From IMG/VR virus record IMGVR_UViG_3300048930_000669, positions 1 to 23,206 of that record: a stretch of 23,206 bases of DNA; one strand, 5' to 3'. The notes under the pieces were generated by a model, which made no database searches, was not told the DNA's origin, and was given only the letters and a program-made list of their open reading frames with translations. The DNA is from a virus. This document shows, one piece after another, positions 9,702 through 20,428 of the stretch (position 1 is its first letter; the number at the start of each line of letters is the position of its first letter). The position numbers were made by a program, and so were the translations under genes.

Positions 9702-10368
9702 TGAGGTGAAATTCGATCTTCATGTGGAAGAGTTCCAGCGGGCTGCCGACCGCCTTGCAGCCTACTCGAAGCGGGACGGCGAGACGTTCATGAAAGAACA
9801 GGTCCGCGGATTCATCCGGCACTTGCTCGATTTCACGCCACCGAGCCGTGGCAGCACACGCGGGGTGAAGGCAAAGAAACTCGGAGAGCAGGCAATTGTG
9901 GGCGACATCCGCGCCGTGTTTCGCGGCGTGTCCGATCCGAAGCGTGCCGATGTGGATTCGTTGGCGCAAATGCGCTCGGTAATCAAATCGCGCCGGAAGA
10001 GCGGCAGCATGCGCGTGGCCAAGGGTGGCACCAAGCTCAAGGCCCCGCGTGCGCTGATCGCGGAACTGATCAAGGCGAAGAAGGCGCGTGTCGGTTATCT
10101 CGCATCGGCGTGGGCGACGGCGGCGCGAAGTGTCGGGAAAATTCGCGTGCCCGGGTGGGTGTCGCGCCACGCCGCGCCTGGCAGCACCGACATCCAGGTG
10201 AGGGAGGGCGAGATCAGCGCGTCGATCACCAACGCCGTGGAGTGGTCATCCAAGGTCAACGGCCTGCGGGCACGGGTGAATGCCGCGCTCCGCGTCCAGA
10301 CCCGCGCCATGGAAAAGCGGCTGCTCTACTTCTTCGCCAACGTGAAGGGGAAGTCCGGCTTCGATTGA
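9679..10368 (+). CDS. Minor tail protein candidate (HK97 gp10-like)
   Basis: A protein of about 225-231 residues starting inside the T frame. Starts in the same frame are TTG 9673, ATG 9679, 9688 and 9694; ATG 9694, overlapping the T stop, gives the most usual spacing, but the choice is open. Features: an N-terminal helix region (EEFQRAADRLAAYSKRDGETF), FTPPSRGST, which recalls the TPvdTGrLr passage of HK97 gp10-type tail proteins, a basic middle (KKLGEQAIV; IKSRRKSGSMRVAKGG) and a C-terminal helix (ARVNAALRVQTRAMEKRLLYFFA). Its position between chaperone and tape measure differs from lambda, where the tape measure follows directly. The family link is tentative. Confidence 0.5.
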   Translation: MATMTMGDEVKFDLHVEEFQRAADRLAAYSKRDGETFMKEQVRGFIRHLLDFTPPSRGSTRGVKAKKLGEQAIVGDIRAVFRGVSDPKRADVDSLAQMRSVIKSRRKSGSMRVAKGGTKLKAPRALIAELIKAKKARVGYLASAWATAARSVGKIRVPGWVSRHAAPGSTDIQVREGEISASITNAVEWSSKVNGLRARVNAALRVQTRAMEKRLLYFFANVKGKSGFD

Positions 10369-10386
10369 CATGCCACCCGTGTCCGA

Positions 10387-12081
10387 ATGGCGAAGCTCAC
10401 CGCACTGCTGACACTCAACACGGCTGGTTTCCAGTCGGCGTTGAAAAGCGCCAAGTCGGCGACGGGTGGTCTCAAGAACTCGATGGCCGGCATGTCGTCG
10501 GGAGCCTCCAAGGGATTCGCGTCGATGGGCAGTGCCATGAAATCCGTGGCGAAGGGGACGGCGGTTGTCGCCGCTGCCGTGGCCGCTGCGGGTGCTGCGG
10601 TTGGCGCACTCACCTACAAGCTGATCCTCTCGGGCGAAGCGGCGAACTCCGCCGACGCCCGCGTCCGCAACATCGCCAAGTCGATGGGGCTGTTCGGCGA
10701 CCAGTCCGATGCGGTGGCCGAACGGCTCAACAATCTCGCGGACAAGATCGAGTTGCAGACCGGCATGGACGGCAATGCGATCCAGATGACCCAGGCGAAA
10801 CTTCTCACCTTCAAGGAACTCGCAGAAACCGCTGACGAAGTGGGCGGCAATTTCGACCGGGCCACCCAGGCTGCGGTGGACATGGCGGCGGCCGGATTCG
10901 GAACTGCTGAACAGAACGCCGTGCAACTCGGCAAGGCACTCAATGATCCGATCACCGGACTGGCGGCATTGCGGCGATCCGGCATCACCTTCACCGAAGG
11001 GGAAAAGGCGAAGATTAAGACCTTGGTCGAATCCAACCGGATGCACGAGGCGCAGGCTCTGGTGCTCGCCGCCATCGAGAAGCAGGTCGGCGGCACGGCA
11101 GCGGCGACCGCGGATGCGTCCGTCCAGATCAAGGCCGCGCTCTCGCAGGGATTCGAGGAAGTGGGCAGGCCGCTTGCCGACGCGCTCGCCTCGCTCACGC
11201 CGCAGTTCCTCGAATTCGTGGAAATGGCCAAGCCCAAGCTGGCCGAAGCCGGACAGTTTCTGGTGGCGATCTTCCGCAGCGGCGAGGCGCTCAATCTCGT
11301 CTGGTCGTCGCTCAAGTTGGCGTTCGCCCAGAGCGTGAATTTCCTGTGGGCCACCCTGCGGGCGACTATCGCCGCCACCGGGCAATACATCGTCGAGTAT
11401 TTCAAGACTGCGGTGACCTACTTCGAAATTCTCACCACCTCCGAGTTCTGGAGCGGCATGGGCAACGCCATCATCGGGATTTTCCTCTCCGCGATCAGTT
11501 TCCTGCAGAAGGGATTCGCTGAGATCATCGAAATCGCCCGTCCGCTCGCCGAGTTGTTCGGCAAGGACGCGGCGCTCGACGGCATCCAGAAGACGATCCG
11601 CCAGAGTGCCTCGATCCTCGATGAAGACGCGGCGGCTCGGTTCTCGACGGCCGGCGACCTGCTGGAACCTGCCGCGCAGAAGATCGCTGAACGCCTTGCC
11701 GAAGCCGGGGAGAACGTGAAGACCCGCTTCAATGAGACCTTCGCCAACACCGCGGAGGCCATCGACACGTCCGGCATGAAGCGCAAGTTCGGCGAGACCG
11801 TTCAGCGTATCAAGGACGCGATCCCACCGGCCAAGGAAGGGAAGAAGGTCGGAACGGGGGCACCGGCACCCGAGAAGCCAAAAGGCCCGGCAACCATTGC
11901 CGGTGGCGGCAGTGCGGCTCTCGGTGGCTTTGCCCAATCCATGAACATGCTCTTCGGGCGCAGCGCGAATGCCGGGTTGCTGGAGGAAAACAAGCGGCAG
12001 ACCGACTGGCTCAAGAAGATCCACGAGAACACCAAGAGCAGGGGCACCACCACGACACCGGGGGAGGCGGTTTTTGCGTAG
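10387..12081 (+). CDS. Tail tape measure protein
   Basis: A 564-residue protein that sets tail length and is ejected with the DNA. An N-terminal Ala/Ser/Gly-rich helical region (about 18-55) is followed by a hydrophobic stretch (about 58-80). Then comes the conserved tape-measure passage: NDPITGLAALRRSGITFT (186-203), EKAKIKTLVES and EAQALVLAAIEKQVGGTAAA (221-240). This matches phage tail-length proteins of the PF06791 type. More hydrophobic helices lie near 300-330 and 355-375. The C-terminal end is helical, with a Pro/Gly-rich linker near 480-510. At about 0.15 nm per residue the length predicts a rather short tail, near 85 nm. TTGACA lies 16 bases before the ATG. Confidence 0.9.
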   Translation: MAKLTALLTLNTAGFQSALKSAKSATGGLKNSMAGMSSGASKGFASMGSAMKSVAKGTAVVAAAVAAAGAAVGALTYKLILSGEAANSADARVRNIAKSMGLFGDQSDAVAERLNNLADKIELQTGMDGNAIQMTQAKLLTFKELAETADEVGGNFDRATQAAVDMAAAGFGTAEQNAVQLGKALNDPITGLAALRRSGITFTEGEKAKIKTLVESNRMHEAQALVLAAIEKQVGGTAAATADASVQIKAALSQGFEEVGRPLADALASLTPQFLEFVEMAKPKLAEAGQFLVAIFRSGEALNLVWSSLKLAFAQSVNFLWATLRATIAATGQYIVEYFKTAVTYFEILTTSEFWSGMGNAIIGIFLSAISFLQKGFAEIIEIARPLAELFGKDAALDGIQKTIRQSASILDEDAAARFSTAGDLLEPAAQKIAERLAEAGENVKTRFNETFANTAEAIDTSGMKRKFGETVQRIKDAIPPAKEGKKVGTGAPAPEKPKGPATIAGGGSAALGGFAQSMNMLFGRSANAGLLEENKRQTDWLKKIHENTKSRGTTTTPGEAVFA

Positions 12082-14732: not shown

Positions 14733-17084
14733 ATGCAGGCCACCGTTTACGCCAACCTTACCACACGCAGGCTGACCACCACGCTTGGCGGCAGTGCGAT
14801 TTCATTCCCCGCTTTCGTCCAAGGCGACAAGGTGCGGATTGGCCTGCGGTTTGCGGAATCGCTCGAAGGTGCGCCCATCGAAATCCAGAAGATCGTCACC
14901 CACATCCGTGCTTCGATTGGCTTTGTTGATGCTCGTCCCACGTCGGGATTCTTCGTGTTGCGTGTGGACGGCCAAGACACCGCGCCGATCCCTCACGATG
15001 CCACGGCGGGGGCTGTGCAAACCGCTCTCGCCGCTGTGGGGCTTGATGACACGGTGGTCAGCAGGCAGGACGGCTCGTGGATCATTTCCACCGGCGAAGA
15101 GAATCACGAGATCACCGGCGCATCCGCCGAAGGACTGCTTTCCGAACTGCGTCCCGTCTCGTTCGTGCGCGTCCGCTCGACGCAGATTGCCGGGCAGTTC
15201 CGCCACGAGGTGCGACTGGTGCAGGCCCCGCTTGCATCGACCGCGAGCTTCGAGACCATCGTGCCACCCGCGCCGACCGTGAGCGAGGTGCAGGCGGGCG
15301 GAGCCTCGGCCACCACACTCTGGCCCGAGATCCAGGCCCTCAAAATCCTGCCGACCTTCAAAGGGACCTATCAAATTCGCCGTGGGTTCAAGAAGACCCG
15401 CGAGCTGTCGGTGGACGACGGGCCCGAGGAAATCCAGGACGCGCTCTCGGTGCTGGCCGACGATGAGGGATCGTTTTCCGTCAGCAACCCAGCGACCAAC
15501 ATCGCCCACATCACCTTCAACGGCTCTATGGCCGGCATCGATCAGGAGTTGCTCGAAGTCGCGGTGTTTGCAGCACCGCCGGGTGATCCGACCGTCACGC
15601 TCGATCTCAACACCGCCGAAATTGCCGCCGCGCTGCGGGCCAATCCCGAAATCCGCCCGGAGCTTGAAATCGAAGTCACGGTCCAAGATGAGAACGATCC
15701 CGACAAGACCTACACGCTCACGCCATTCCGCGCTCCGATCACGCTGATCCGCGAACTCAACTGGGAGGGACTGGAAGCTGCCGCCAACATCGACTGGCTG
15801 CGGCCACCCTATGGCCGAACCTACATCCCGTTCACGCCCGACCAGATCATCACCGGATCGCAGCACTATGTCGCGCCCATCGGTGACGGGGTGAACGCGG
15901 AGTTCACCATCAGTCACAACCTTGGCACCCGCGACTTGCACGTCACCGTGCGCCAGAACGGCGGCAACCGCGCCATCGTCGAACCGCTGGCCGTGACACT
16001 CGATGGCCAGAACGACCTGAGCATCACGTTTGCCGAACCGCCCACGTTGAACGGATACGTCGCCATCATCTCCACAGCAGGCCCGGTGTCCGCATTTCAG
16101 GCGCACGGGCACACCATCGCGCAGATTGAGGGGCTGCAACTGATTCTCGATGACCTGGGTGAGCGTGTCGAGGACCTGGAAACATTCATCCCGACTTCTC
16201 CGCCTGGAGTCAGCAGCACTCAGCAAACCGTCATCGCCGCGTGGGAACTGCCGGAACTCTTCGAGGTGTTTCCGACCCGCCAGAAGATCGACGCGAAGGA
16301 CGTGCCCTCGATCAAGCCCGCCGACCTCCCTCGTGTGGGTGGCCTACTGCCCGCCGTGTATGTCGATCCGCTGGTCACCACCACGGTCGCCGCACTGCCG
16401 CCATTCCCCGTGACCGGCGTGATCTATGAATACACCAACACCGCCGCGCCACTGGTGATTCCCGGCTACCTCGGCCGCCGCTCAACCAAGCTCAATGCCC
16501 CGGGATTCTTTGCGTGGGACGGGCGCGGGTTTTATCAGGTCGAGCAGATCATCCCGAATGAGAAGGTGTTCTACCCGTCGGACTTCTTCCGCGAGCTGTT
16601 CCGCATCCACGTCAACGGCAAGCAACTGCGGCTCGGCAAACGACTCTCACTCGACTTCTCATTCGTCGCGGCTGTCTTCAACTCGAACACCCTGGTGCAT
16701 TGGGGCGTGGCCATCGACATCGGCATGCCGTCGAGCAATCCGCCGAACCCGAGCAATATCGCGGATGTGACCTTCCTGCCCCCGTCGCTCGATCACAGCT
16801 TCATGCTCACGAGCGTTCCCTCCTCGCACGGCTTCGGCCTGCGCATCGTCCGCAAGATCGTCGATACGGTGGATACCTGCGTCGTGGACCGCGTGATCTA
16901 CGGGGCCACCGAGGCGACTGAAACCACCCTGACCACCGCCAACTTCATCTTGCGCGGCCGTCTCGTGCGATTCGACACCGACGACCACCAGACCGATCCC
17001 CGCGGACTGGTCGCGTTCAACGGGCTGAAAGCCACCCTCACGGACGAAGGCGAATCCGAACTCGGCAAAGCAACCATTCAATAA
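14733..17084 (+). CDS. Tail fibre or baseplate protein with beta repeats
   Basis: A 783-residue protein, the largest in the window, probably a trimeric fibre or receptor-binding platform. The N-terminal 60 residues look like a baseplate-attachment domain (MQATVYANLTTRRL...GDKVRIGLRFAES). Two copies of a phage beta repeat follow: GFFVLRVDGQDTAPIPHDATAG-like (72-93, then AVQTALAAV) and GTYQIRRGFKKTRELSVDDG with EEIQDALSVL (211-241), each ending in a strand. Then comes IGDGVNAEFTISHNLGTRDL plus VTVR, a fold found in many phage fibres. A short coiled coil (IEGLQLILDDLGERVEDLETF) and a C-terminal beta region with FFRELFRIHVNGKQ complete it. It starts 32 bases after the 53-residue gene and ends two bases before the next ATG. 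Confidence 0.75.
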   Translation: MQATVYANLTTRRLTTTLGGSAISFPAFVQGDKVRIGLRFAESLEGAPIEIQKIVTHIRASIGFVDARPTSGFFVLRVDGQDTAPIPHDATAGAVQTALAAVGLDDTVVSRQDGSWIISTGEENHEITGASAEGLLSELRPVSFVRVRSTQIAGQFRHEVRLVQAPLASTASFETIVPPAPTVSEVQAGGASATTLWPEIQALKILPTFKGTYQIRRGFKKTRELSVDDGPEEIQDALSVLADDEGSFSVSNPATNIAHITFNGSMAGIDQELLEVAVFAAPPGDPTVTLDLNTAEIAAALRANPEIRPELEIEVTVQDENDPDKTYTLTPFRAPITLIRELNWEGLEAAANIDWLRPPYGRTYIPFTPDQIITGSQHYVAPIGDGVNAEFTISHNLGTRDLHVTVRQNGGNRAIVEPLAVTLDGQNDLSITFAEPPTLNGYVAIISTAGPVSAFQAHGHTIAQIEGLQLILDDLGERVEDLETFIPTSPPGVSSTQQTVIAAWELPELFEVFPTRQKIDAKDVPSIKPADLPRVGGLLPAVYVDPLVTTTVAALPPFPVTGVIYEYTNTAAPLVIPGYLGRRSTKLNAPGFFAWDGRGFYQVEQIIPNEKVFYPSDFFRELFRIHVNGKQLRLGKRLSLDFSFVAAVFNSNTLVHWGVAIDIGMPSSNPPNPSNIADVTFLPPSLDHSFMLTSVPSSHGFGLRIVRKIVDTVDTCVVDRVIYGATEATETTLTTANFILRGRLVRFDTDDHQTDPRGLVAFNGLKATLTDEGESELGKATIQ

Positions 17085-17086
17085 CC

Positions 17087-17836
17087 ATGGCCATCCCCGT
17101 CATTTCCAACACCACCTCAGTCCTCGGCTACCGCAAAGGACAGTATTTCGAGTATCAGATGCAGGCGACCAACTCGCCAACATCATGGACCGCGAGCGGC
17201 CTGCCATCCGGCATGTCGATCAGCAACGCCGGCCTCGTCAGCGGAGCCGCGACCACAGCGGGCGTCTATCTCGTGAAAGTCATCGCCACGAATGGTGACG
17301 GCCCGTCCGCGCCCTTGGAAGTGGCCATGGGCATCGAGGACACCAACTACAACGACGGCATCGGCATCGAGGTGAACATCGATCTGCGAAGCGGCGCGGT
17401 TTCCGTCCCCGGCATCACGCCCTCCTCTGGCCAGAATGCGAGCCAAGCCGTCATGTTCCTCAAATACGGTGACAAGGTGTTTCTCGATGTCGGATTTCTC
17501 AAGGGCGAGGAACTGCAAACGATGGCGATGGCGTCCATCGTCATGAACATCCGCGAGTTCGACGGCGAAACCGTGCTGGTTCAGAGCAACGGCGGCATCG
17601 AGATCATCGGCACCAGCGACCGCCCGCGATACCGCATCCTTGTCGATCTCGCCTCGCCGGATCTCATAAACGCGCTCGGCAACTACCAGGGCGACTATCA
17701 GACGACCTTCGACGCCATCGCCGAAATCGAGTGGCGCGTGGACTACCTCGAACCGAGCGCATTGTCCGACGAGGTCATCCGTTCGTCCAAGACCTTCCGC
17801 ATCGCCATCGACCGCGACCTCGTTCCGAACCTATGA
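17087..17836 (+). CDS. Structural protein with N-terminal He_PIG-type Ig domain
   Basis: A 249-residue protein. Residues about 8-80 follow the pattern of a putative Ig (He_PIG) domain: GYRKGQYFEYQMQATNSPT, then ASGLPSGMSISNA-GLVSGA-TTAGVYLVKVIATNGDG, with the usual Y..i.a...p..w.a.gLP.Gl......G.isGtp...G.y.v.v.a.n..G order. These domains are common in surface and phage fibre proteins of Verrucomicrobiota and Planctomycetota. The remainder is beta-rich (VFLDVGFLKGEELQ, TMAMASIVMNIREF, WRVDYLEPSA) without a recognised fold. The ATG is three bases after the fibre stop. It probably decorates the tail tip or links the fibre to carbohydrate receptors; the role is inferred. Confidence 0.65.
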   Translation: MAIPVISNTTSVLGYRKGQYFEYQMQATNSPTSWTASGLPSGMSISNAGLVSGAATTAGVYLVKVIATNGDGPSAPLEVAMGIEDTNYNDGIGIEVNIDLRSGAVSVPGITPSSGQNASQAVMFLKYGDKVFLDVGFLKGEELQTMAMASIVMNIREFDGETVLVQSNGGIEIIGTSDRPRYRILVDLASPDLINALGNYQGDYQTTFDAIAEIEWRVDYLEPSALSDEVIRSSKTFRIAIDRDLVPNL

Positions 17837-18267
17837 CCTACGGCACCGGCATGATCTGGCCACTGGCCGCCGAATACGCCCGTCGGGGGTGGGCGGTGCG
17901 TCGTGCCGGGTGGGATGACCTTGAGTTGTTCGGCGACACGGGGCGTGCCCTGCGTTGGGTCGTGTATCAGAACGCCTTGTTCTGGTTGCTCTATCGACAA
18001 GTCGGCACCGGCAACAAGGCGACTCGCGTCATTCGCAACACGGATTTCGGCGTGGAGGATTTCTATGCGGAGGATTGGACCGTGCTTTCACCGACCTGTT
18101 TCGACGGTGTGAGCATCACAGGAGCGGACCTCTACCAGCAGGGCAAGAAACGGTATCCACGCCCGATTGATGTCTCGCCTGTCGTCGATCCGCGCAACCC
18201 GAACTCGAAGTATGGCGCGTGCCCGGTCGTCCCGCTCTACGACTCTATTCGGAGGGTTTCGCCATGA
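17833..18267 (+). CDS. DUF2829 (Tad2-like) domain protein, copy 1
   Basis: A 144-residue protein starting in the previous stop (ATGA); an earlier in-frame start at 17731 lies inside the preceding gene and is rejected. Residues about 5-90 match DUF2829 (Thoeris anti-defence Tad2 family): a helix-strand start MIWPLAAEYARRGWAVRRAG plus W, comparable to 'aL..lk.Gk.V.R.GW', then RWVVYQNALFWLLYRQ, and the closing RNTDFGVEDFYAEDWTV, comparable to 'edllAeDW.v'. Tad2 proteins bind cyclic nucleotide immune signals. A C-terminal tail (KRYPRPIDVSPVVDPRNPNS, then GACPVVP) is shared with the next gene. The place inside the fibre cluster argues that it may instead be a virion part using the same fold. The ligand-binding residues cannot be judged here. 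Confidence 0.6.
   Translation: MTYGTGMIWPLAAEYARRGWAVRRAGWDDLELFGDTGRALRWVVYQNALFWLLYRQVGTGNKATRVIRNTDFGVEDFYAEDWTVLSPTCFDGVSITGADLYQQGKKRYPRPIDVSPVVDPRNPNSKYGACPVVPLYDSIRRVSP
17848..17913 (+). repeat. Tandem-duplicated DUF2829 core, copy 1
   Basis: A 66-base segment that is 57/66 identical to 18279-18344 (431 bases downstream). All nine differences are third- or first-position synonymous changes; the encoded 22 residues are identical in both genes (GMIWPLAAEYAR...RAGW). This is a duplicated coding unit under strong amino-acid constraint. Confidence 0.9.
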
Positions 18268-19871
18268 GCATCGGACACGGCATGATCTGGCCCTTGGCCG
18301 CCGAGTATGCCCGTCGTGGATGGGCAGTGCGGCGTGCGGGGTGGTCGAATGAAATCACCAACCCGTTCAACCACACCTCGTCGCTGCGCTGGATCATCCA
18401 TCACAGCGGTCTGTTCCATGTGACGTATCTCAACCGGGGAGACGACTTCATTGTCGGCAACGTCAGCCGTGTGGTTCGGAATACTGACTTTGGCGTGGAT
18501 GAGTTCTACGCCGACGACTGGACGGTGTATGCTCCGGGTTGCTCTGCCACCCCGGCACCCGACCAACAGGGCAAGCTCTGGTATCCCGGCGCGGTTGATG
18601 ACGAGCCATACACTGACCCCACCGAGCCAGGGGCGGGCAGCTCCGGGTGTCCCGACGTGCCACCTATCATTGATCCCCCGCCACCGAACTGCGGCGGATT
18701 ATGCCAGCCACCGCCCTACTGTGGACCGAACTTCAAGCTCGTGACTGGCGGTTATGATTTGTGCGGCTGCCGCACCCACATCTGCCAGCCGTTGTTTTGC
18801 GCGGACCCTACCACATGCCCGCCCGGTTCCACGCTGCGAATCGCTGGCTACAATGATCTCGGATGCGCGATCTGGATTTGCGCTCCGGATGACCGGGAGC
18901 CGTGCGGTGATCCACCCGCTTGTGGTGCCGACACCAAACTCGCTGTGAGCGGCAGTGATGCCCGAGGCTGCCCCACTTACATTTGCCAGCCCATTGCCTG
19001 CGGCGATCCTCCGGCCTGCCCGACGGGACAATCCCTCACCGTCACCGGCTACGACGATGCCGGATGTGCCTTGTGGGGGTGCGTGCCAAATGACGGGCCA
19101 TGCGGCGACCCGCCCGCGTGCGGTCCCGGACTCATCCTCGTGCAAACCGGAGTCGATGCGAACGGCTGCGCCACCTTCAAATGCCAAAAAGACGATGGTG
19201 GGGGCGGAGGCGGCGGGGGAGGCGGCGGGGGAGGAGGAGGTGGCGGCGGCGGTGGTGGTGGTCCGCGTCCACCCAGGCCGCCGCCGAATCGTGACCCGGC
19301 CCAGATCACTATCGAGAACGTGACGTGGACGCCTCAGTGCTTCCTCGACGGCACCGCGCCGCCGTTCCAGATCCAACTCGGATTCCGGGTCCGACTTGGC
19401 CCGGCTCCGACTGCCTATGCCAACGGACTCTATTGGATCTCAGTCTATGTGCACGGCAAGAAGATCGACGCCCCTTCATGGACGCCAGGAACGGCCGTCG
19501 ATTACTCCGTCGCCGTGCAGCAGGATCTGGGCAAATCCGTCCTGATCCGCGCCAACGCCTACCTGCCGATCAAGAAGATCCAGTCCAACGACCAGCACGA
19601 GTTCAACTTTCCGAAAATGTGCGGCAGCGGATGCACGAACCCATACGCGGCCAACTATGATCCGGAGATTTCCGACGATGACGGCTCCTGCATCACCTGC
19701 GCCTCGGCGGGAAAATGCCTCCCGAATGACACCGACGAAGGGGAGAACTGCAACAATGTCGGCAACGGCTGCTGCGACGGCTACTGCGAAACCGCCGGCG
19801 ATTGCAGCCCGTCGTTCCGCAGATCATTCACGGCGGAAAACGGAACCTACTACCCAAGCTGCTTCGGATAA
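18264..19871 (+). CDS. Mosaic adhesin: DUF2829 + Cys-rich repeats + poly-Gly + C-terminal domain
   Basis: A 535-residue protein. The start at 18264 overlaps the previous stop and has GGAGGG (18251-18256) seven bases upstream, so a start at 18219 is rejected. Residues 1-95 are a second DUF2829 (Tad2-like) domain and, up to about 137, a tail similar to copy 1. Residues 143-309 hold five cysteine-rich units (C..P.C..G..L...G.D..GC....C). Residues 312-333 are 22 glycines, then PRPPRPPP. Residues about 346-450 are a beta domain. Residues 456-476 form the GCTNP...DDGSC motif known from bacterial surface proteins, followed by more Cys pairs. The disulphide pattern suits an extracellular or virion-surface adhesin. 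Its origin appears to be duplication of copy 1 with fusion to new domains. Confidence 0.7.
   Translation: MSIGHGMIWPLAAEYARRGWAVRRAGWSNEITNPFNHTSSLRWIIHHSGLFHVTYLNRGDDFIVGNVSRVVRNTDFGVDEFYADDWTVYAPGCSATPAPDQQGKLWYPGAVDDEPYTDPTEPGAGSSGCPDVPPIIDPPPPNCGGLCQPPPYCGPNFKLVTGGYDLCGCRTHICQPLFCADPTTCPPGSTLRIAGYNDLGCAIWICAPDDREPCGDPPACGADTKLAVSGSDARGCPTYICQPIACGDPPACPTGQSLTVTGYDDAGCALWGCVPNDGPCGDPPACGPGLILVQTGVDANGCATFKCQKDDGGGGGGGGGGGGGGGGGGGGGGPRPPRPPPNRDPAQITIENVTWTPQCFLDGTAPPFQIQLGFRVRLGPAPTAYANGLYWISVYVHGKKIDAPSWTPGTAVDYSVAVQQDLGKSVLIRANAYLPIKKIQSNDQHEFNFPKMCGSGCTNPYAANYDPEISDDDGSCITCASAGKCLPNDTDEGENCNNVGNGCCDGYCETAGDCSPSFRRSFTAENGTYYPSCFG
18279..18344 (+). repeat. Tandem-duplicated DUF2829 core, copy 2
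   Basis: Partner of the segment at 17848-17913, located at the start of the mosaic adhesin gene. Outside this core the two genes remain similar in protein sequence (RWVVYQN versus RWIIHHS; RNTDFGVEDFYAEDWTV versus RNTDFGVDEFYADDWTV) but not in long DNA blocks. Confidence 0.9.
18690..19190 (+). repeat. Five cysteine-rich protein repeats of about 33 residues
   Basis: Within the mosaic adhesin, units start near residues 143, 179, 214, 246 and 280, each with four cysteines in the order C-P-C-G-L-G-D-GC-C. Consensus features are GDPPAC, a glycine-aspartate turn (TGYDDAGC, SGSDARGC, TGVDANGC) and a final C.P. The units differ in sequence, so this is an old expansion rather than recent slippage. 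Confidence 0.85.
19197..19262 (+). repeat. (GGN)22 tract encoding 22 consecutive glycines
   Basis: Twenty-two glycine codons of mixed third base (GGT, GGC, GGA, GGG), followed by a Pro/Arg-rich stretch. It forms a flexible linker between the Cys-rich repeats and the C-terminal domain of the adhesin. Because it is trinucleotide-based, slippage would change linker length without breaking the frame. Confidence 0.9.
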
Positions 19872-20428
19872 TGGACAAGAAAGACCTCATTCCCTCGTGC
19901 CTTCAGGCGTTTCAGGACGACCCGCAGTTTCGCGTTTCGCTGAAATCGGCCATGCCGGTGAAATCGCGCGAGGCATTCGAAGCGGTGGAACACGACGGGA
20001 TGTTTCTTCCGAACGGCATGATGACGCAGGCAGGCCATGACTTCATCAAGGAACTCAACACGGCGTTGCCCGTCGTGGAGGGGACACTTGCTGCGCTTGG
20101 TGATTCCGCGATCAAGGCCTGTGCCTCGGAATACCGCAACGGGGTCGAGTCCCGGAGATCGGCGCATGCGATGGAACGACAAGCGGCACCACCAGGGCTG
20201 CTCAAGAGGGCCGGAAGCCTGGCCAAAGCGATTGGGGCGGAAACGAAAGCCATCGCCCGGAAACAACCGAATCTGACCGCTCAGCAAGTGGCGGCTCGTC
20301 TGGCCATCTGCGGCTCGTGTGACCAACTGCGGCCGAACCGAACCTGCGCCCGTTGCGGATGCTTTGTCGATGCCAAGGCACGGTTCAGATCACAGGACTG
20401 CCCGCTGCGCAAATGGCCGACCAGGTGA
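19871..20428 (+). CDS. Unknown protein with C-terminal zinc ribbon
   Basis: A 185-residue protein whose ATG shares one base with the preceding TAA (TAATG); a start at 19802 is within the adhesin and rejected. The N-terminal part is helical (PSCLQAFQDDPQF, REAFEAVEHDG, HDFIKELNTALP). The C-terminal 40 residues hold six cysteines (147, 150, 159, 162, 164, 177) in the order CGSC...CARCGC...CPLRKW, with RLAICGSC before and an Arg/Lys-rich loop between, which is a zinc-ribbon pattern found in small phage proteins near tail genes. It might bind nucleic acid or stabilise a fibre chaperone; no function is assigned. Confidence 0.6.
   Translation: MDKKDLIPSCLQAFQDDPQFRVSLKSAMPVKSREAFEAVEHDGMFLPNGMMTQAGHDFIKELNTALPVVEGTLAALGDSAIKACASEYRNGVESRRSAHAMERQAAPPGLLKRAGSLAKAIGAETKAIARKQPNLTAQQVAARLAICGSCDQLRPNRTCARCGCFVDAKARFRSQDCPLRKWPTR

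What the first reader, a model, noticed from the sequence alone, without database searches (positions are those of the whole stretch)
17833..18600. Tandem DUF2829 (Tad2-like) genes inside a tail-fibre cluster
Two adjacent overlapping genes share a domain with the DUF2829/Tad2 order (Gx.V.R.GW at the start, AEDWTV at the end). Known Tad2 proteins are small cytoplasmic sponges that bind the Thoeris signal and related cyclic nucleotides. Here both copies sit among fibre and baseplate genes, and one is fused to a disulphide-rich extension. Either an anti-defence gene has inserted into the late operon, or the fold has a virion role (ligand or sugar binding) that has not been described.
Basis: partly seen in the sequence, partly recalled or inferred. 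Interest (0 to 1): 0.75.

Follow-up and report, generated by a model that had tools for sequence, protein, structure and literature searches.

The report
Tad2-like fold in phage tail proteins
Two neighbouring genes of a virus of Verrucomicrobia carry a domain that looks like a known anti-defence protein, but it belongs to a conserved tail-gene set and lacks that protein's hallmark motifs, so it has probably been reused as a building part of the virus particle.

Summary
Gene A (17833-18267, 144 aa) and gene B (18264-19871, 535 aa) overlap; A aligns with B's first 129 residues at 50% identity. Pfam misses the shared domain (A 11.5 bits, cut-off 25; B none). Other tests support a Tad2-type fold. 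A predicted model of A's domain aligns best to three Tad2 entries (Z 7.4, 7.3, 6.2; next 3.1), although Foldseek alone ranked none in its top 50. Profile comparison with 20 PF11195-type sequences scores 41.0, against at most 17.5 in 200 shuffles. Motifs typical of those sequences are absent: WNG[KEA] 15 of 20 against 0 of 50, WxxSxxD..A..W-type 14 of 20 against 0 of 50. It does not look like a recent anti-defence insertion: it starts just after one Ig-like tail gene at 35 of 40 places examined in Verrucomicrobia phages and prophages (three of the other five are contig ends). Outside the window's group, 15 of 19 places found encode one long protein with the domain at its N-terminus and a glycine-rich part behind it; 10 of these 15 also carry B's Ig-like beta-sandwich. 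A and B look like one duplication, both under purifying selection. Most likely it is a tail-tip attachment or oligomerisation module. Virion presence and ligand binding are untested.

The parts
17833..18267 (+). gene A: Tad2-like domain plus short neck, 144 aa
   Evidence: both copies found in all 12 related viral contigs; dN/dS 0.06-0.17 in 8 of 9 pairs, the ninth saturated
17833..18099 (+). Tad2-like domain of A (residues 1-89)
   Evidence: AlphaFold model pLDDT 75.7, pTM 0.64; best matches 8wjd, 8wje, 8smg
18100..18264 (+). neck of A (residues 90-144); its first 41 residues align with the neck of B
18264..19871 (+). gene B: Tad2-like domain, neck, Cys-rich repeats, poly-Gly linker, beta-sandwich, Cys-rich C-terminus, 535 aa
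18264..18542 (+). Tad2-like domain of B (residues 1-93)
18543..18686 (+). neck of B
18687..19187 (+). Cys-rich repeat region of B (22 Cys)
   Evidence: in 11 B proteins compared, the window's included, total Cys 14-55 and length 369-666 aa
19197..19262 (+). run of 22 glycines in B
   Evidence: longest Gly run 2-44 in the 11 B proteins
19287..19622 (+). Ig-like beta-sandwich of B
   Evidence: model pLDDT 96.3, pTM 0.85; best Z 10.0, generic Ig/CARDB/PKD-type sandwiches
19623..19868 (+). Cys-rich C-terminal part of B (10 Cys)
17087..17836 (+). gene directly upstream: He_PIG Ig-like, 249 aa, likely tail protein
   Evidence: Pfam E 7.3e-8; PHROG tail protein E 1.4e-5; syntenic marker
14733..17084 (+). 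783-aa likely tail/fibre protein upstream of the He_PIG gene
   Evidence: partial PHROG tail, head and virion hits; homologue in 11 of 15 larger loci examined

Best explanation
A and B are paralogous parts of the tail tip or fibre apparatus of a group of lambda-like siphophages of Verrucomicrobia (siphophage and temperate inferred from gene content and from copies on bacterial contigs). Their shared N-terminal domain is a diverged member of the Tad2 fold that lacks the motifs typical of the signal-binding family. It most likely works as an assembly module: it folds and oligomerises (as solved Tad2 does) and anchors the protein at the tail tip beside the He_PIG protein, while the linker, beta-sandwich and Cys-rich parts of B reach outwards. 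A, which is the domain and neck without the rest, most likely mixes with or caps B and sets how many long arms are displayed. Shown by computation: the genes, the profile homology and predicted fold match, the motif absence, the fixed gene order, A and B as two clades, purifying selection. Inferred: virion location, oligomerisation, anchoring, and the A-B relation.
For: Fold: of 995 PDB chains aligned, only three have Z of 5 or more, all Tad2 (8wjd Z 7.4, 2.2 A over 64; 8wje Z 7.3; 8smg Z 6.2; next 3.1); the model's alignment held no canonical Tad2 row. Profile homology: hhalign probability 94%, E 1.3e-7, score 41.0; 200 column shuffles at most 17.5, reversed 9.2, two unrelated alignments 13.1 and 14.8. 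Gene order: the profile match to the He_PIG gene ends within about 45 bases of the Tad2-like match (in L117, of its ORF) at 35 of 40 distinct places: 31 of 34 (L081 dropped as a copy of L038), L118 (L119-L121 dropped as copies of L107, L106, L116), and 3 of 5 more; 3 of the 5 misses are contig ends. Fusion: of 19 places outside the window's group found by the order search, 15 encode one protein of 336-571 aa (two of them cut by a contig end) with a Gly-rich part behind the domain; 10 of these 15, and L038, carry the beta-sandwich at E <= 1e-4. Duplication: A and B are each one side of a branch in 95% and 100% of bootstrap trees, with the single fused copy L038 beside them. Selection: dN/dS 0.03-0.17 in the 15 of 18 pairs (window against 9 of the 12 contigs, for A and for the B domain) where it could be computed.
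Against: No virion proteomics. No Pfam, PHROG or NCBIfam tail-fibre family matches A or B; among 6 fused relatives only one weak tape-measure PHROG hit (E 0.049, L105). The model of A is only of medium confidence, Foldseek alone ranked no Tad2 entry in its top 50, and Z 7.4 is a value that unmatched models can also reach. The branch of A has SH-aLRT 50 only. Two true misses of the gene order: L083 (damaged copy) and L115, which lies beside a DUF3987 gene. A W-x-G trace of the first motif remains in 10 of 50 clade rows.
Confidence: 0.68

Rival explanations
1. A virion ligand-binding domain: the Tad2 fold keeps a pocket, re-tuned for a host-surface sugar or nucleotide-sugar, so that B (and A) are receptor-binding proteins.
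For: The clade has its own conserved residues outside the shared core: R23 and W42 in 50 of 50, R65 and D71 in 44 of 50 rows. B carries an Ig-like sandwich. Of 6 fused relatives scanned, one matches the chitin-binding CBM_14 family over its cut-off (L115) and one under it (L057).
Against: No pocket could be examined on coordinates. The N-terminal domain is the conserved part, whereas receptor-binding ends usually vary most (general knowledge); here the length-variable part is the Cys-rich/Gly region.
Confidence: 0.17
2. A working anti-defence sponge expressed late: A and B sequester a Thoeris- or CBASS-type signal in the cytoplasm, as Tad2 does.
For: Same predicted fold; canonical DUF2829 genes can sit inside structural operons and in tandem (phage SpaA1 genes 7, 60 and 61; passages of PMC3398947; P60/P61). 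Tad2 relatives bind different signals (gcADPR, His-ADPR; passages of PMC13299392).
Against: WNG[KEA] 0 of 50 and the WxxSxxD-type motif 0 of 50, against 15 of 20 and 14 of 20; fusion to a long Gly-rich protein at 15 of 19 outside places; position fixed in the tail cluster.
Confidence: 0.1
3. The Tad2 resemblance is convergent: a small alpha/beta fold that happens to share W, R and ADW positions.
For: Foldseek did not rank Tad2; the first, shallow profile comparison gave 8.3% probability; no PDB sequence matched the profile A2 at E <= 10.
Against: Shuffle control; only Tad2 entries stand out; the family profile reaches SPO1L3 Tad2 at E 0.0027 in a set of six-frame ORFs; L113 matches PF11195 over positions 1-72 of 73, E 0.016, under the cut-off.
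Confidence: 0.05

Closest known systems
Tad2 / DUF2829 (Pfam PF11195), e.g. SPO1 gp34.65 (PDB 8smg, 8wje) and SptTad2 (8wjd)
   Same: Predicted fold over 62-64 residues; shared A, G, V, R, W of the first helix and strand and D/E..A.DW at the end.
   Different: Under the Pfam cut-off; WNG[KEA] and WxxSxxD-type motifs absent; own invariant W42 in an inserted stretch; in B fused to a ~440-residue extension; tail-cluster position.
Tandem DUF2829 genes of phage SpaA1 (P60/P61)
   Same: Two adjacent Tad2-like genes that overlap by one base (passages of PMC3398947).
   Different: Both are small and unfused, and lie among genes without an assigned function near the record's end.
Modular phage tail-tip and fibre accessory proteins (general knowledge)
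   Same: Position behind the likely tape measure and tail genes; Gly-rich linker, Ig-like sandwich, variable Cys-rich part.
   Different: No sequence match to a known fibre family; N-terminal Tad2-type fold (no such fusion was seen in the listings).

Membership tests
Tad2 (PF11195, Thoeris anti-defence 2) | Profile match over the curated cut-off | tested here: not met
   A 11.5 bits against 25; B no match; fused relative L113 16.2 bits
Tad2 (PF11195, Thoeris anti-defence 2) | Tad2 fold | tested here: met
   Predicted model; Z 7.4, 7.3, 6.2 to Tad2 entries, next 3.1; profile comparison with shuffles. Prediction only, medium confidence
Tad2 (PF11195, Thoeris anti-defence 2) | Conserved motifs in the regions that line the gcADPR pocket (loop beta1-beta2; loop beta4-alpha3 and alpha3; regions as told in passages of PMC12043709; matching them to the motifs is my inference) | tested here: not met
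   0 of 50 clade rows against 15 of 20 and 14 of 20 PF11195-type rows; a shorter W-x-G trace in 10 of 50 against 17 of 20; many of the 50 are near copies
Tad2 (PF11195, Thoeris anti-defence 2) | Homotetramer that binds a signalling nucleotide and blocks Thoeris or CBASS | not testable with these tools
   needs protein
Tad2 (PF11195, Thoeris anti-defence 2) | Small stand-alone protein | tested here: not met
   B 535 aa; 15 of 19 outside places encode 336-571 aa; A alone is stand-alone, 144 aa
Phage tail-tip/fibre component | Encoded in the tail module in conserved order | tested here: met
   He_PIG gene directly upstream at 35 of 40 places; 783-aa protein homologue in 11 of 15 larger regions
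Phage tail-tip/fibre component | Sequence match to a known tail-fibre family | tested here: not met
   A, B; 6 fused relatives, one weak tape-measure hit
Phage tail-tip/fibre component | Present in virions | not testable with these tools
   no proteomics

The most novel reading that the evidence does not exclude
The Tad2 fold, known as a cytoplasmic sponge for immune signals, also exists as an old tail module of Verrucomicrobia phages. In its boldest form the domain still binds a nucleotide-like or sugar ligand, so that virions carry it either as a receptor-binding domain or as a sponge delivered with the particle, and the anti-defence sponges and the tail module share an ancestor that could have started on either side.
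Probability: 0.18. Interest if true: 0.85.

Novelty: new variant of a known kind. Interest (0 to 1): 0.6.

Why it matters
If right, a fold now used to annotate genes as anti-defence has a second life as a tail part. Structure-based annotation alone would then mislabel tail proteins as Thoeris inhibitors, and the origin of signal sponges (from, or into, virion parts) becomes testable by comparing the two clades. It also gives a function hypothesis for a conserved but unannotated tail-cluster gene of Verrucomicrobia prophages, including Akkermansiaceae.

Tried and rejected
Foldseek alone gave no match at E <= 0.001 against PDB or viral models; no Tad2 entry is in the 50 PDB rows shown, and the viral rows are mostly unnamed proteins that I did not follow up (best E 0.055, prob 0.97, phage 4MG). 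The Tad2 signal appeared on realignment. The first profile comparison (10 against 8 rows) was weak (8.3%) and grew with deeper families (37% local, 62% global; 94%). The profile A2 matched no PDB sequence at E <= 10. The narrow profile A2 found only 2 of 387 genomes of the phylum; the broader A5 found 16 of 239 of the order. The only phage hit of A by tblastn (Sphingopyxis phage VSN-002, E 2) falls inside a 753-aa hypothetical protein near a pectate-lyase gene and shows no ADW motif: taken as chance. tblastn of B and of the He_PIG protein against named phages found nothing. Viral-contig scans with L057, L038 and two distant subfamilies gave 0, 1 (itself), 1 and 3 loci. The clade was not sought by profile outside Verrucomicrobia genomes. 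Papers with the Tad2 pocket residues (Nature DOIs from recall) are not held, so the pocket was judged by motif conservation, not from coordinates. The beta-sandwich has only generic Ig-like matches, and no function is read from them. Prior print: open-licence papers only; of the 10 papers with PF11195, Tad2-like or DUF2829 I saw passages of three and listings of the rest; none of these describes a tail fusion in what I saw. Outside those ten I saw passages of PMC12043709 and PMC11722364.
Full report
What is there. Gene A (17833-18267) and gene B (18264-19871) follow each other with overlapping start and stop codons, and A overlaps the stop of an upstream gene of 249 aa. That upstream gene has a He_PIG Ig-like domain (Pfam E 7.3e-8) and a tail PHROG match (E 1.4e-5). 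Further upstream lie terminase GpA, a lambda-type portal, an S49 peptidase, a P22-like coat protein and a likely tape measure (Pfam E 0.0023, under its cut-off), then several genes among them a 783-aa protein with partial tail, head and virion PHROG matches. The window is a virus record. Close relatives lie on contigs of Akkermansiaceae and other Verrucomicrobia assemblies; the best of 18 loci compared are about 87% identical in DNA to the window over 7.7-7.8 kb.

The shared domain. A aligns with residues 1-129 of B at 50% identity; the ~90-residue domains are 53-55% identical. All 12 related viral contigs found with A hold both copies. PF11195 (Tad2-like) is far below its cut-off for A and absent for B. 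A search of 387 genomes of the phylum with PF11195 finds nine genomes at E <= 0.01, but not G013, which carries the window's relatives.

Is it a Tad2 fold? An AlphaFold model of A's domain, built from 33 rows without any canonical Tad2, has pLDDT 75.7 and pTM 0.64 and the order helix, four strands, short helix, strand. Foldseek alone did not rank Tad2 in its top 50. Realignment of Foldseek's 1000 best chains (995 aligned) put three Tad2 entries on top (Z 7.4, 7.3, 6.2; rmsd 2.2-2.3 over 62-64 residues) and everything else at 3.1 or below. The tool warns that Z 7-8 can be chance, so sequence profiles were tested separately. Profile comparison with 20 PF11195-type sequences (ten over the Pfam cut-off, the others from named phages, one annotated as Tad2) rose from 8.3% (10 rows against 8) through 37-62% to 94%, E 1.3e-7, with 50 clade rows. 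200 column shuffles scored at most 17.5 against 41.0; the reversed alignment scored 9.2 and two unrelated alignments 13.1 and 14.8. I take homology as well supported.

What is lost. In a merged alignment the two groups share A12, G19, V/I22, R24, W27, D/E76, A79, D81 and W82 (numbers of A). WNG[KEA] is in 15 of 20 PF11195-type and 0 of 50 clade rows; the WxxSxxD..A..W-type motif in 14 of 20 and 0 of 50; a looser W-x-G in 17 of 20 and 10 of 50. I place these motifs in the loop beta1-beta2 and the beta4-alpha3 region, which a review names as lining the gcADPR pocket (passages of PMC12043709); I could not check individual contacts. Many of the 50 rows are near copies. The clade has its own conserved residues (R23 and W42 in 50 of 50, R65 and D71 in 44 of 50), so a different ligand is not excluded.

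Where it lives. The clade profile A5 finds 16 of 239 genomes of the order, with 19 places outside G013. Fifteen of the 19 encode one long protein (336-571 aa; the two of G426 are cut by the contig end): the domain, then Gly-rich stretches. The exceptions are a damaged fragment (G556), a 137-aa form (G411:C21), the two short pieces of G500, and G545, where the domain is incomplete. Ten of the 15, and L038, carry the beta-sandwich of B at E <= 1e-4. That sandwich is predicted with high confidence (pLDDT 96.3) and has generic Ig/CARDB/PKD-like neighbours. The He_PIG match ends just before the Tad2-like match at 31 of 34 distinct places, at L118 and at 3 of 5 more: 35 of 40. Three misses are contig ends (L105, L111, L089); L083 (damaged) and L115 are true misses. 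Homologues of the 783-aa protein lie upstream in 11 of 15 larger regions. Phyla other than Verrucomicrobia were not searched by profile.

How the tandem arose. In the tree of 50 domains (labelled A or B by a short motif) A and B each form one side of a branch in 95% and 100% of bootstrap trees (support 91/50 and 98/99), with the single fused copy L038 beside them (few columns, so deeper forks are unresolved). A is the domain and neck of B without the Cys-rich region, linker and sandwich. Both are under purifying selection: dN/dS 0.03-0.17 in the 15 of 18 pairs where dS could be computed; the pairs all share the window and use 9 of the 12 contigs. Among 11 B proteins, the window's included, Cys count (14-55), longest Gly run (2-44) and length (369-666 aa) vary strongly.

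Mechanism. Best reading: an N-terminal Tad2-fold assembly module of a tail-tip accessory protein, with A as a short partner of B. The location in virions, the oligomer and the A-B relation are inferred. Rivals are a ligand-binding virion domain and a late-expressed sponge. Published canonical DUF2829 genes inside a structural operon and in tandem (SpaA1; passages of PMC3398947) keep the sponge rival alive, but the motif loss and the repeated fusion speak against it.

Known or new. I saw no paper describing a Tad2-type domain in tail proteins in the listings, which cover open-licence papers only. I file it as a new variant: Tad2 fold, not a Tad2 by the cut-off and motif tests.

Noticed in passing
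L115 (G439:C1), 9927-11063: A fused Tad2-like protein lies beside a DUF3987 gene, with no He_PIG gene found; its end matches CBM_14 (E 7.1e-8). Possibly a satellite element that carries a tail part.
   Followed up: partly
L096 / L117 (G500): Behind the He_PIG gene lies a 78-aa ORF with a weak Tad2-like match and then a 246-aa protein with a second weak one (E 4.2e-5 and 0.0088): perhaps a separate tandem.
   Followed up: partly
L040 and L042 (JAGYIT010000014.1): Two related prophage tail regions lie at the two ends of one 178-kb Akkermansiaceae contig; in one the He_PIG gene and B are broken into several frames, by decay or assembly error.
   Followed up: no
window 19197-19262: A 22-residue poly-Gly tract; the longest Gly run differs between B proteins (2 to 44) as does the Cys count: a candidate for rapid length variation.
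   Followed up: partly
window 19802-20428: Small protein with a DUF6171 match (E 3.2e-6) behind B; a homologue lies behind the Tad2-like gene in L081.
   Followed up: no
L059, L066, L068: Some PF11195 proteins of Verrucomicrobia genomes carry an extra N-terminal part (with SW[CS]PK..FE) before the Tad2 domain.
   Followed up: no
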